This document shows positions 1 to 64,000 of a stretch of 64,000 bases of DNA, one piece after another. Made by a program: the position numbers and the translations under genes. The stretch spans positions 1-64,000 of the forward strand of contig JAISJR010000049.1 of assembly GCA_031261425.1 (NCBI GenBank). Direction: 5' to 3'. This stretch comes from Planctomycetota bacterium. GTDB taxonomy: Bacteria > Planctomycetota > SZUA-567. The notes beneath the pieces are model-generated. The model had not been told where the DNA came from, searched no databases, and worked only from the letters and a program-made list of their open reading frames with translations. The stretch's first letter is position 1, and each line of letters begins with the position of its first letter.

Positions 1-138
1 AGCGTCGGCATTTGCGAGGTCGGGGCGAACTACGAATCGGCGCGGCAGATTTTCCTCAACGCCGACCAAGCGCTCTACCAAGCCAAAGAAACCGGACGCA
101 ATCGCGTCGTGCGGTATGAGGCGGAAGGGAAGAGTTGA
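1..138 (+). CDS. GGDEF-domain protein, C-terminal end (partial)
   Basis: The first 45 codons read in frame 1 to a TGA at 136-138 and give the end of a GGDEF domain. The stretch ADQALYQAKETGRNRV is the conserved C-terminal helix of diguanylate cyclases. The GGEEF catalytic loop lies outside the window, so activity and N-terminal domains cannot be judged. The last two codons (AGT TGA) already belong to a 7-bp tandem array. A second, complete diguanylate cyclase lies at 3263-4261, so c-di-GMP signalling is probably used by this organism. Confidence 0.85.
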   Translation, partial: SVGICEVGANYESARQIFLNADQALYQAKETGRNRVVRYEAEGKS

Positions 139-273
139 GAGTTTAGAGTTTAGAGTTGAGATGTGGAGTAATTTATCAAAATTGCGCTTCGCGGATTTTC
201 AAAATAACTCCACTGCTCAACTCTCAACTCTCAACTCTCAACTCTCAACTCTAAACTTTCAACTCTCAACTTT
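132..273. repeat. Heptad-arm inverted repeat element, GAGTTGA type
   Basis: The left arm is tandem GAGTTGA/GAGTTTA units and the right arm is CAACTCT units, its complement. Between them lies a core with GGAGT..., GCTTCGCG and ...ACTCC. The whole can fold as a long hairpin. It begins inside the last codons of the GGDEF gene. Confidence 0.8.
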
Positions 274-277
274 CCCC

Positions 278-544
278 TTACGCCGTTTTGATGCCGGTGT
301 TGAGCATTTGCGCGATACTCGCTTTGACGGCGAGCGGGTCGAGGATGTTGCCGCCGCCGAAGAGGCGCGCCAGCAATAGGCGGGTCGATGCTCGACTGCC
401 GGTCGACGCCCGATTGCCGGTCGCTTGCCGGCGGCTGTTCGCCTTTTTTTTCGGCGGACGCGCGGTCGCGGCGGATTGCAAGTCGATTACCGGCGGCGCG
501 TCGGTTGCCGCCAATGCCGGCGGCGTTTTTTTTGTGCGTCCCAT
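278..544 (-). CDS. Hypothetical small basic protein
   Basis: An 88-residue protein of unknown function. The start is taken at the ATG at 542-544 because an AAGGATGAG ribosome site precedes it by about seven bases; the frame stays open further upstream without a comparable site. The N-terminal two thirds is low-complexity and basic (KK, RR, Ala/Ser/Thr rich). Only the last 35 residues, with LFGGGNILDPLAVKASIAQ, look foldable and are predicted helical. It has no neighbour on its strand. An overlapping plus-strand frame (288-743) was rejected for lack of a start site and unnatural composition. Confidence 0.45.
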   Translation of the reverse strand: MGRTKKTPPALAATDAPPVIDLQSAATARPPKKKANSRRQATGNRASTGSRASTRLLLARLFGGGNILDPLAVKASIAQMLNTGIKTA

Positions 545-779
545 TTTCTCATCCTTGATTTTTCGCGAGACGACCGTTCTCGCGGTTCCCCATTGCCGGT
601 TTTTATCGCGCTTTCCCGGCTTGCTCCGATTATCGGCGGCGACCGCGCGGGGCTTTAATACAATCGTCAATTATTGTCGAGGGAAAACGCGCCCGACATT
701 TTTCGCGGTCAACCGCTTGAATCGGCGTGGCGGCGGTTTCTAATACGGGGCGTTTAGCGTCAACCGGAGAGGACTAACG

Positions 780-1958
780 ATGAGCATTTATTTGGACAAT
801 GCCGCGACGACGGCGGTCAGAAAAGAGGTCTTGACCGCGATGTTGCCGTTTTTCAGCGAAAATTACGGCAACGCTTCCGCGAAGTATTACGAACTCGGCA
901 AACGTTCCCGCCGCGCCGTTATGGAGGCGCGCGGGCAAGTCGCCCGCCTGCTCGGCGCGAACGACCACGCCGACGAAGATAAATTACCGGAGGTCTTTTT
1001 CACGTCCGGCGCCACCGAAAGCAATAACTGGGTCATCCAAAACGCGCCGGATTTCACCGGCAAAAAACATCTCATCACTTCGTCCATCGAACATCACGCC
1101 GTTTTGGAAACCGCCGAATTTATGGCGAAAAAACGCGGTTGCGCGTTGACGGTCGCGCCGGTGGACGGTCGCGGTTTCGTCAATCCCGCGGACATCGAAA
1201 AAGCGATTACCTCCGACACGGCGCTCATCAGCATAATGTTTGCCAACAACGAAGTCGGCACGATTGAGCCGATTGCCGCCATCGCGGCGGTCGCCAAAAA
1301 ACACGGCGTGTTATTCCACACCGACGCGGTGCAGGCGGCGGGAAAAGTGCCGCTCGACGTGAAAAAATTGGGCGTGGATTTTCTGTCGATTTCGGGACAT
1401 AAATTTTACGGACCGAAAGGCGTCGGCGCGTTATACATCAGTTCGGCGGTCAAAAAATTTCCGGCGTGGGCGCTCGGCGGCGGACAAGAAAAACACCGGC
1501 GCGCCGGCACTTACAACGTGCCGGGCATTGTCGGTCTGGGCAAAGCCGCCGAATTGGCGGCGGCGGAAATGGCGGCGGTGGACGCGCGCGAGCGCGAATT
1601 GGTCGAGCGGTTATGGGCGGGCTTGTCGGCAATTCCGCGTATTTATCGCAACGGCGACGCGACCGAACGGTTGCCCAATATTCTGAACGTGCGGTTCGAC
1701 GGCGCGGAAGGCGAGGCGATTTTATTGCGGTTAGACCGGCAGGGAATTCAGGTCGCGTCGGGGTCGGCGTGTTCGACGGATTCGCTCGAACCGTCGCACG
1801 TGTTGTTGGCGTTAGGGGTGCCGACGGAGTCCGCGCACGGGTCAATCCGGTTCAGTTTGGGGCGCGAAACCACGGCGGCGGACATCGACCAAACAATTGC
1901 AATTACCGCGCAACAAGTGAAAATCATTCGCGATATGAGCGTAACGTGGGACGGGTGA
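780..1958 (+). CDS. Cysteine desulfurase (NifS/IscS class)
   Basis: A 392-residue PLP enzyme that takes sulfur from L-cysteine for Fe-S cluster and thio-cofactor synthesis. The N-terminus YLDNAATT, the PLP-lysine segment SISGHKFYGPKG and the mobile loop with catalytic cysteine (SGSACSTDSLEPSHVL) are all visible. The short loop and the overall length fit class I desulfurases (NifS/IscS). The ATG at 780 follows GAGGACTAACG. No iscU, iscA or iscR is adjacent: the next genes are a 44-codon frame and hicBA, so it cannot be assigned to a dedicated ISC, NIF or tRNA-thiolation role. The sequence alone does not separate nifS from iscS. Confidence 0.93.
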   Translation: MSIYLDNAATTAVRKEVLTAMLPFFSENYGNASAKYYELGKRSRRAVMEARGQVARLLGANDHADEDKLPEVFFTSGATESNNWVIQNAPDFTGKKHLITSSIEHHAVLETAEFMAKKRGCALTVAPVDGRGFVNPADIEKAITSDTALISIMFANNEVGTIEPIAAIAAVAKKHGVLFHTDAVQAAGKVPLDVKKLGVDFLSISGHKFYGPKGVGALYISSAVKKFPAWALGGGQEKHRRAGTYNVPGIVGLGKAAELAAAEMAAVDARERELVERLWAGLSAIPRIYRNGDATERLPNILNVRFDGAEGEAILLRLDRQGIQVASGSACSTDSLEPSHVLLALGVPTESAHGSIRFSLGRETTAADIDQTIAITAQQVKIIRDMSVTWDG

Positions 1959-1980
1959 AACGCCGTAAAAAGGAAATAAA

Positions 1981-62674: not shown

Positions 62675-63232
62675 CTATTTTCTCAACGTCTCTCGCAACC
62701 GCGCCAGCCGACCTTTGACGGTTTCGTCCAGCATCATATCGCCGATTTTCACGCGCACGCCGGCAATCAGCCCGCGATTGACGCCGACCATCAGCCGCAC
62801 TTTTTTACCGAGTTTTTTCTCTAACGATTTTATCAATTGTTCGCGGTCGGCATCGTCCAAACGTTTCGCCGACTGCACCTGGGCTTCGTAAATGTTTTCA
62901 AATTCCATCGAAATTTCGGCGTAATTACGCATAATCGCGCTAATTAAGCCGACGCGCCGGTGGCGAAGCAGGACGTTCAAAAACTCCGACACGATTTTAC
63001 CGATTTGCAATTTTTCGCACAAAACATCCGTCATTTCGATTTTATCTTTGAGCGACACCGTCGGCGTTTCTAAAAAGTCCAACAATTCCGGCACCGAAAT
63101 ATCGCCGGCGTCGGGGTCCAAAATATCCGCCAGCCGCAACATATCGACGTGCGTCCGCTCCAATTCTTTCTTTTCCGTCGCCGCCGCCACCAACCCTTTG
63201 GCATAGCGAATCGCTATCACGTCTTGAATCAC
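62675..63232 (-). CDS. atpH: F-type ATP synthase subunit delta
   Basis: A 185-residue stator subunit linking F1 to the b subunits. IAIRYAKGLVAAA opens the N-terminal helical domain. VSEFLNVLLRHRRVGLISAIMRNY and VRLMVGVNRGLIAGVRVKIGDMMLDETVKGRLARL are the conserved OSCP/delta features. A GTG at 63232 is chosen because AGAGGGA precedes it; codons further upstream lie in the heptad region. It is located between atpF and atpA as usual. Confidence 0.92.
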   Translation of the reverse strand: MIQDVIAIRYAKGLVAAATEKKELERTHVDMLRLADILDPDAGDISVPELLDFLETPTVSLKDKIEMTDVLCEKLQIGKIVSEFLNVLLRHRRVGLISAIMRNYAEISMEFENIYEAQVQSAKRLDDADREQLIKSLEKKLGKKVRLMVGVNRGLIAGVRVKIGDMMLDETVKGRLARLRETLRK

Positions 63233-63257
63233 GGTAATTCCCTCTTTTTTTAAGAGC

Positions 63258-63360
63258 AATTACAGATTAAAAATTAAAAATAGTGGATTGGACTTAAAAA
63301 TGGCGCGAAGCGAATTTGAAAATCAAACTCCACAATTTTTAATTCGTAATTTTTAATTTC
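63258..63360. repeat. Heptad-arm inverted repeat element, AATTAAA type
   Basis: Left arm AATTACA/GATTAAA/AATTAAA, core AGTGGATTGGACTTAAAAATGGCGCGAAGCG...AATCAAACTCC, right arm TTTTTAA/TTCGTAA. It separates atpF from atpH inside the operon and ends at the atpF stop. Confidence 0.85.
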
Positions 63361-63363
63361 GTA

Positions 63364-63939
63364 TCACTGGGTCATCGTTTTGAGGATGTCGCCAAAAACC
63401 TTTTTCCGGTCGGCGTCCGTTAATTTGCCGCGCATAGTTTTTTCCGCTTCGGCAAAGGCGTCGTTCAACAATTTATTGTGTAGTTCCCTCTTCGCTCGCT
63501 CAACTTCCGCCGCCGCGTCGCGCTCAATATCGGCAATCGCCTGCTGGGCGTCCGCGTGCGCGCTTGCAAGTATCGCTTGCTTTTCCGAAGCGATTTGCGT
63601 CGTCATCGACGACATCACTTGCGTCCGTTCGTCTTCTAATTGCGCCTCCATTTCCGCTTCGTAGTCCTCAAACTCCTGCGCCGAGTTATTGGCGGCGCGC
63701 GCTTCTCTCAATTTTTTCGCCGTGTCCGCCGCCGCCGCGTCTAACCCTTTCGCGACCATCTCCTTAAACCCTAACCACAACAGCGTGAAAACAATAATCG
63801 CGTTGTAAAGCGTGAACCAATACGACCAGTCAATTTCCACGGTCGGCGAATTGCGCAAACACAAAAAAACAATAGTCAACGCCACGTAAATGACGCCAAA
63901 GACGATACCGGCTATTTTGACTTTTGCCAATGGCGACAT
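63364..63939 (-). CDS. atpF: F-type ATP synthase subunit b
   Basis: A 191-residue stator subunit. The start is the ATG at 63937-63939 after AAGGTGGG. The second hydrophobic segment (WFTLYNAIIVFTLLWLGFKEM) is the usual anchor of b, followed by a long Ala/Glu/Lys helix typical of the dimeric stalk (KKLREARAANNSAQEFEDYE...EVERAKRELHNKLL). An additional hydrophobic segment before it (VKIAGIVFGVIYVALTIVFLCL) gives two anchors, which is unusual. No atpE or atpB is visible before the window edge. Confidence 0.85.
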   Translation of the reverse strand: MSPLAKVKIAGIVFGVIYVALTIVFLCLRNSPTVEIDWSYWFTLYNAIIVFTLLWLGFKEMVAKGLDAAAADTAKKLREARAANNSAQEFEDYEAEMEAQLEDERTQVMSSMTTQIASEKQAILASAHADAQQAIADIERDAAAEVERAKRELHNKLLNDAFAEAEKTMRGKLTDADRKKVFGDILKTMTQ

Positions 63940-63971
63940 CTTGACCCACCTTTTCAAAGAGCAAAAGAGCA

Positions 63972-64000
63972 ACTAAAAATTACAAATTAAAAATTAAAAA
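63972..64000. repeat. Heptad array, AATTAAA type, cut by window end
   Basis: AACTAAA, AATTACA and AATTAAA units upstream of atpF form one arm of another element whose core lies beyond the window. Confidence 0.7.

What the first reader, a model, noticed from the sequence alone, without database searches (positions are those of the whole stretch)
132..64000. A dispersed family of hairpin elements with 7-bp tandem-repeat arms and a shared CGCTTCGCG core
Seen: about twenty intergenic elements (e.g. 132-273, 3128-3230, 8314-8430, 12562-12712, 13494-13609, 14158-14250, 32951-33086, 38098-38214, 43027-43126, 43227-43350, 44404-44513, 59034-59135, 63258-63360) share one plan: heptad array, GGAGTTTGATT-type half-site, CGCTTCGCG or CGCGAAGCG, AATCAAACTCC half-site, complementary heptad array. 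The core is conserved and occurs in both orientations. Heptanucleotide arrays are known in cyanobacteria (STRR) and REP/RAYT units are known elsewhere, but I know of no family combining a fixed core with exchangeable 7-bp arms. No transposase is in the window, so mobility in trans or a replication/recombination origin is inference.
Basis: seen in the sequence. Interest (0 to 1): 0.85.

Follow-up and report, generated by a model that had tools for sequence, protein, structure and literature searches.

The report
Hairpin repeats whose middles flip over
Two related uncultured planctomycete bacteria carry hundreds of short hairpin-shaped DNA repeats between their genes, and in about a third of the same-site pairs we could compare the middle of the hairpin has turned around in place while its arms stayed put, which makes these genomes a rich natural record of how hairpins rearrange DNA.

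Summary
The window holds about 15 complete elements plus partial, nested or one-armed ones. They belong to a family of several hundred copies in this 2.6-Mb planctomycete genome and its one held genus-mate (Planctomycetales bacterium MS499-59). Each copy is about 115 bp: two ~30-bp inverted arms of about four degenerate heptads around a ~50-bp imperfect palindrome tipped by CGCTTCGCG. Period 7 dominates (152 arrays against 0-5 at periods 4-6 and 8).

AATTNNN arms go with one core and AGAGTTN arms with another (about 96%).

The new result explains the two core orientations. At 32 orthologous sites with clearly homologous cores, 21 keep their orientation and 11 are inverted in situ; arms stay in place in 10 of those 11. 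In two of the 21 only the 3-nt tip loop flipped. No serine invertase was found, no target-site duplication, and no convincing transposase link. The best reading is a genus-specific, MITE/REP-like dispersed palindrome whose hairpin makes the core flip by template switching or recombination between arms. The mobility machinery is unknown. The parts resemble known things (Xanthomonas heptad pairs, Nostoc trnL P6b stem, plastid hairpin-loop inversions); this combination and scale were not found in the papers searched.

The parts
131..271 (+). element, B arms (AGAGTTN), A-like core, tip TTC on +
   Evidence: orthologous in G001
3127..3230 (+). element, B arms; core inverted in the genus-mate at the same site
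6741..6815 (+). one-armed element (left A arm plus core, right arm missing)
8315..8429 (+). element, A arms; same site in G001 carries a ~300-bp insert of other palindromes
12562..12711 (+). element, A arms (10 and 4 heptads); core conserved in G001, fewer heptads there
13491..13609 (-). element, A arms (AAC type); G001 keeps only the left arm
14158..14249 (-). element, B arms; G001 has an A-type element near this site
25409..25426 (.). single A heptad array; G001 has a complete element here
29851..29879 (+). single B heptad array, no core
32951..33085 (-). element, A arms; absent at this site in G001
36143..36527 (-). element, A arms, interrupted on the left by another repeat (TTCGTGTAA array); core 36434-36493
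38099..38214 (+). element, A arms (AAA-ACA-AAA-AAA); G001 has only a remnant TAATTGCGC
43027..43128 (+). element, B arms, beside tRNA-Leu 43134-43215; core replaced in G001
43225..43351 (-). element, B arms, on the other side of tRNA-Leu, core in opposite orientation
44404..44513 (+). element, A arms (AAC type); arms kept, core changed in G001
54667..54982 (.). element, A arms, core interrupted by another palindromic repeat (54734-54875)
59029..59135 (+). element, B arms
63256..63363 (-). element, A arms
63978..64000 (+). A heptad array running off the window end

Best explanation
A genus-specific family of non-coding, dispersed intergenic palindromes (MITE/REP-like in form). Each is a ~115-bp imperfect hairpin with two ~30-bp inverted arms of ~4 degenerate heptads and a ~50-bp core ending in the very stable mini-hairpin CGCGAAGCG. 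SHOWN: copies fall into a few subfamilies with linked arms and cores; they sit between genes; at orthologous sites arms usually persist while the core flips, is replaced, or is lost with one arm. INFERRED: when the DNA is single-stranded (replication, cruciform) the element folds, and template switching or recombination between the inverted arms turns the core around; slippage changes heptad number; deletion at the hairpin base leaves one arm. INFERRED and unresolved: copies were originally spread by some transposition-like process acting in trans. No host function is demonstrated.
For: Period 7 dominance. 201 A-type and 161 B-type core matches in own; 69 and 112 in genus-mate G001; none for A and a single weak (3-mismatch) match for B in 58 other relatives. 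202 paired-arm elements in 1.17 Mb of own. Arm-core linkage 124/129 and 81/84. Position-fixed heptad variants (ACA third from the core) show whole-unit copying. Strong hairpins on both strands. Of 32 orthologous cores with homology beyond 95% of unrelated copies, 21 same and 11 inverted (95% CI of inverted 19-53%), arms in place in 10 of 11. Inverted cores match the reverse complement at up to 96-97% identity. Two of the cores differ by inversion of the TTC loop alone. PF00239 serine recombinases absent in both genomes while the control rings in 10 of 14. d(GCGAAGC) is described as extraordinarily stable, Tm 78 C (PMC4686876).
Against: No target-site duplication (2.4% against 2.0% shuffled). 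No autonomous partner found. Left-right heptad variants match no better than expected within subfamilies in own (p=0.49), so no sign of arm-to-arm correction there. Tyrosine recombinases exist in both genomes, so an enzyme-driven flip is not excluded. Only draft assemblies of two species were compared; reads were not available to check for mixed orientations.
Confidence: 0.62

Rival explanations
1. Invertible switches: a site-specific recombinase turns the cores over as a phase-variation system.
For: In-place inversion at about a third of comparable orthologous sites, bounded by inverted repeats, with arms kept; tyrosine recombinases are present.
Against: No serine recombinase (PF00239) in either genome. 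Flips occur in both arm classes with different cores, and also in the 3-nt tip loop alone. Core orientation relative to neighbouring genes is balanced for B (14 to 13) and only mildly skewed for A (26 to 13). A ~50-bp core is short for a promoter switch.
Confidence: 0.1
2. RAYT/REP-type elements mobilised as single-stranded hairpins by a Y1 transposase.
For: Hairpin with a stable tip. Y1_Tnp genes exist (one in own, two in G001). One G001 Y1 gene lies between heptad arrays (L261).
Against: No GTAG/CGTC tag at the core edge (6 of 173). The own Y1 gene has different terminal hairpins and no heptad array within ~1.5 kb. L261's immediate ends are a different hairpin (CCCCACGCTTTAGCGTGGGG).
Confidence: 0.12
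3. Functional RNA hairpins at gene 3' ends (bidirectional terminators or mRNA stabilisers).
For: 84% of element-facing gene 3' ends lie within 25 bp of an element, and stop codons often fall inside the arms. Strong RNA folds. U-rich right arm in A-type elements. The tip 7-mer is kept intact in 26 of 28 orthologous cores against 58% for other core 7-mers.
Against: Context (tandem, convergent, divergent) is near background. Cores flip, are lost or are replaced between close species. The arms show no compensatory signal beyond subfamily in own. Half of intergenic regions of 100 bp or more have no array.
Confidence: 0.2
4. Plain heptameric satellite arrays (slippage) that happen to lie in opposite orientation.
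For: 235 unpaired arrays coexist with 202 paired elements in 1.17 Mb. Arrays of other heptads (GGGAAAA, AGTTGGT, CAGTGRN) also occur. AATTNNN arrays occur in other planctomycetes.
Against: Conserved core between arms, linked arm-core subfamilies, arms of about four units with position-fixed variants.
Confidence: 0.08
5. The inversions are assembly artefacts of palindromic DNA.
For: Palindromes are error-prone in assembly; both genomes are multi-contig drafts.
Against: Whole elements (~115 bp) fit inside ordinary reads (general knowledge). The arms and outer flanks remain in register, and 21 of 32 cores keep their orientation.
Confidence: 0.08

Closest known systems
Paired GGGAATC heptad arrays in Xanthomonas (PMC4692102)
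   Same: Degenerate heptads, commonest array size four units, many arrays in close inverted pairs (70-75 per genome), intergenic, nearer to the upstream gene.
   Different: Different heptad, G-rich; no conserved core and no core inversion in the sections read.
Nostoc trnL intron P6b stem with Class I/II heptads (PMC4476775)
   Same: A stem built from heptads on both sides, two heptad classes that replace each other, length change in 7-nt steps, inserts forming side hairpins.
   Different: A single locus inside a group I intron, not a dispersed family.
Small hairpin-loop inversions in plastid genomes (Kim & Lee 2005, Catalano 2009, as cited in PMC12928735 and PMC6387583)
   Same: Loops between short inverted repeats (8-50 bp) flip between related species.
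   Different: Isolated loci in plastids; here a repeat family supplies several hundred candidate loci in one bacterial genome.
REP / GTAG-CGTC tagged palindromes and RAYTs (PMC3733652)
   Same: High-copy short intergenic palindromes, also known from planctomycetes.
   Different: No GTAG/CGTC tag, longer, heptad arms, no matched transposase.
STRR-type and TAACTGA heptamer arrays (Calothrix as cited in PMC4692102; Beggiatoaceae, PMC4679880)
   Same: Tandem intergenic heptamers.
   Different: Mostly direct repeats without inverted arms or a core; TAACTGA arrays lie just upstream of start codons.

Membership tests
REP (GTAG/CGTC) | Tetranucleotide tag at the base of the palindrome | tested here: not met
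   6 of 173 elements have GTAG or CGTC within 6 nt of a core edge
REP (GTAG/CGTC) | Associated RAYT gene flanked by the repeat | tested here: inconclusive
   Own Y1 gene unrelated; one of two G001 Y1 genes lies between heptad arrays but has other terminal hairpins
MITE | Short non-coding element with terminal inverted repeats | tested here: met
   ~32-bp inverted arms, ~50-bp non-coding centre
MITE | Target-site duplication | tested here: not met
   Direct repeats of 5 bp or more at the ends: 2.4% against 2.0% shuffled; heptad ends blur the borders
MITE | Parent transposon with the same ends | not tested
   No targeted search for a transposon with these ends was made; only Y1, resolvase and phage-integrase families were searched
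Heptameric tandem repeats (STRR-like) | Degenerate tandem 7-mers, intergenic | tested here: met
   20 of 419 arrays lie inside predicted genes
Invertible DNA switches (invertons) | In-place inversion between inverted repeats | tested here: met
   11 of 32 orthologous cores inverted
Invertible DNA switches (invertons) | Dedicated recombinase | tested here: inconclusive
   No PF00239; PF00589 present, not linked to the elements
Invertible DNA switches (invertons) | Promoter or gene inside the invertible part | not tested
   The core is ~50 bp; no expression data

The most novel reading that the evidence does not exclude
Several hundred hairpin elements in one genome form a distributed set of spontaneously invertible intergenic segments, with flipping driven by DNA structure rather than by an enzyme. 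The conserved GCGAAGC tip is kept by selection because it nucleates the hairpin or binds a protein, and orientation affects the 3' ends of neighbouring genes.
Probability: 0.12. Interest if true: 0.85.

Novelty: new variant of a known kind. Interest (0 to 1): 0.6.

Why it matters
Hairpin-loop inversion and heptad-armed stems are known singly. Here one repeat family supplies several hundred candidate natural replicates in one bacterial lineage, with an asymmetric core that records each flip and arms that stay put. That makes the rate and mechanism of hairpin-mediated inversion, arm loss and core replacement directly measurable. It also ties the scattered reports of heptamer repeats (Xanthomonas, Nostoc, Beggiatoaceae) to a palindromic architecture.

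Tried and rejected
1) RAYT link: Y1_Tnp found, but with different ends. 2) Free exchange of arms: rejected, arms and cores are linked. 3) Arm-to-arm gene conversion: no signal beyond subfamily in own (p=0.49); G001 gives p=0.001, but its AAG-type arms were not split off as a subfamily. 4) Hot spot for nested palindromes: nested cases exist, but the other repeat motifs tested are not clearly enriched near heptad arrays (0-33% against 26% for random intergenic positions; the 33% case is 4 of 12). 5) Other palindromic families as a flip control: only about one of 7-8 orthologous intervals shares the copy, so they are uninformative. 6) Virus or plasmid carriage: no match in viral contigs, plasmids or phages. 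7) Rfam: only a tRNA in the window. 8) Target duplications: none.
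Full report
OBSERVATION. The window lies in a 2.62-Mb draft genome (contig C38). Its only held genus-mate, G001, is Planctomycetales bacterium MS499-59. All coordinates in the finding hold elements of the described plan. CGCTTCGCG is threefold over-represented in the window (23 against 7.6). Period 7 dominates: 152 arrays in 422 kb, against 0-5 for periods 4-6 and 8.

ANATOMY. In 1.17 Mb of own genome there are 202 elements with paired arms and 235 unpaired arrays, which extrapolates to about 450 paired elements. 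Arms have a median of 32 bp; cores have a median of 53 bp (class A) or 44 bp (class B). Class A arms are AATTNNN in two subtypes. The AAA subtype carries ACA at the third heptad from the core, so these are copies of a defined unit and not random slippage products. Class B arms are AGAGTTN. Arms and cores are linked: 124 of 129 assignable A-armed elements have the A core and 81 of 84 B-armed elements have the B core. A small third group has A arms with a variant B-like core. Some elements have other heptads (GGGAAAA, AGTTGGT). The tip is CGC-TTC-GCG; its other strand, CGCGAAGCG, contains the mini-hairpin d(GCGAAGC), described as extraordinarily stable and nuclease-resistant (PMC4686876). Seven strands from five elements fold as DNA with z-scores of -6.9 to -8.6 and as RNA with -6.8 to -11.0.

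PLACE. Only 20 of 419 arrays lie inside predicted genes, although 81.5% of the DNA is coding by a simple codon-usage gene caller written for this work. Element ends lie within 25 bp of the adjoining gene's 3' end in 84% of cases, and many stop codons fall within the arms. Gene-pair contexts are near background. Half of the intergenic regions of 100 bp or more hold an array.

DISTRIBUTION. The A core pattern gives 201 matches in own (up to 3 mismatches) and 69 in G001 (up to 2), and none in 58 further relatives. The B core pattern gives 161 and 112, plus one weak match in a same-family genome. Exact matches in a scan of 84,980 species genomes came only from MS499-59 (the window's own genome may be masked there). 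Viral contigs, plasmids and phages gave none. Heptad arrays with other or no cores, some paired, occur in several other planctomycetes. So heptads are widespread, while this core is confined to the genus as far as tested.

THE KEY TEST. I compared orthologous intergenic intervals between own and G001, whose flanks are mostly about 90-97% identical. Of 87 own elements with an orthologous interval: 18 keep a demonstrably homologous core in the same orientation; 10 have it inverted; 20 keep the arm class but have an unrelated core (7 of them with longer inserts); 12 are too similar to unrelated copies to assign; 17 have another arm class; 7 are absent or reduced to an arm or remnant; 3 have other sequence. 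Using both directions, 32 cores are more similar to their ortholog than to 95% of unrelated copies and can be oriented: 21 same, 11 inverted. The arms remain in place in 10 of the 11. The example in the window is 3127-3230, whose core reads CAAAGGATGCGCTTCGCGCGTCTTGAAAAAATA here and as its reverse complement in G001, between arms that have not moved (this is also the one locus where the arm score is a near tie, 46 to 47). Independent insertion in opposite orientation does not explain this, because the inverted core is closer to its orthologue's reverse complement than to nearly all other copies (up to 96-97% identity). Two of the 21 same-orientation cores differ by reversal of the three-base tip loop alone, so flipping happens at two nested levels, as hairpin geometry predicts. 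The tip is otherwise unusually stable: 26 of 28 tips present in own are intact in the ortholog and the other two are the loop flips, while only 58% of other core 7-mers are intact. One-sided ascertainment is small: in two further pairs only the ortholog carries the tip.

MECHANISM. Shown: in-place inversion, arm persistence, arm loss, core replacement. Inferred: single-stranded or cruciform folding followed by template switching or recombination between arms. A serine invertase is unlikely (PF00239 absent in both genomes, control positive). Tyrosine recombinases are present, so an enzymatic flip is not excluded. Dispersal must once have copied whole units, but no target duplication, tag or partner transposase supports a specific machinery.

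KNOWN RELATIVES. Xanthomonas GGGAATC arrays (commonest size four units, 70-75 inverted pairs per genome, PMC4692102) and the Nostoc trnL P6b stem (two heptad classes, 7-nt steps, PMC4476775) are the nearest in anatomy. Plastid small inversions (PMC12928735, PMC6387583) are nearest in behaviour. REP elements (PMC3733652) are nearest in genomic style but fail the tag test. I found no paper describing this combination; subscription journals were largely not searchable.

VERDICT. Real, genus-specific, a new variant of a known kind. Its interest lies in the number of independent core inversions that can be compared; function and mobility remain open.

Noticed in passing
window 7133-7326, 34781-34964, 54734-54875: Another abundant palindromic family (ends CTCTATTCAATTGCCACGC..., inner GGCTTTAGCC hairpins). 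It is shared at only about one of 7-8 orthologous sites between the two species, so it looks younger and more mobile; its hairpins resemble the ends of a Y1-transposase element in G001 (L261).
   Followed up: partly
window 26500-26760 and 36160-36400: A repeat beginning CTC(A/G)YGTTACGCG and, at 36160-36400, ending CGCGTAACACGAG, with TTCGTGTAA 9-bp tandem units, sits next to or inside heptad elements; related ends are seen in L151 and L261.
   Followed up: partly
window 43027-43351: tRNA-Leu (43134-43215) lies exactly between two B-type elements whose cores face opposite ways.
   Followed up: no
window 30597-30868: A long palindromic repeat (CCCAGGGTAAG...CTTACCCTGGG) related to the ~300-bp inserts found inside some heptad elements (win 8315 ortholog in G001, L151:5332).
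   Followed up: partly
L072 (G003), L069 (G039), L081 (G013): Paired inverted heptad arrays around unrelated 40-70 bp spacers in other planctomycete genera: the arm architecture exists without this core.
   Followed up: partly
L197 3030-3677; L005 1450-1600: Elements with AGTTGGT-type heptads and an extended A-like core, a further minor subfamily.
   Followed up: no
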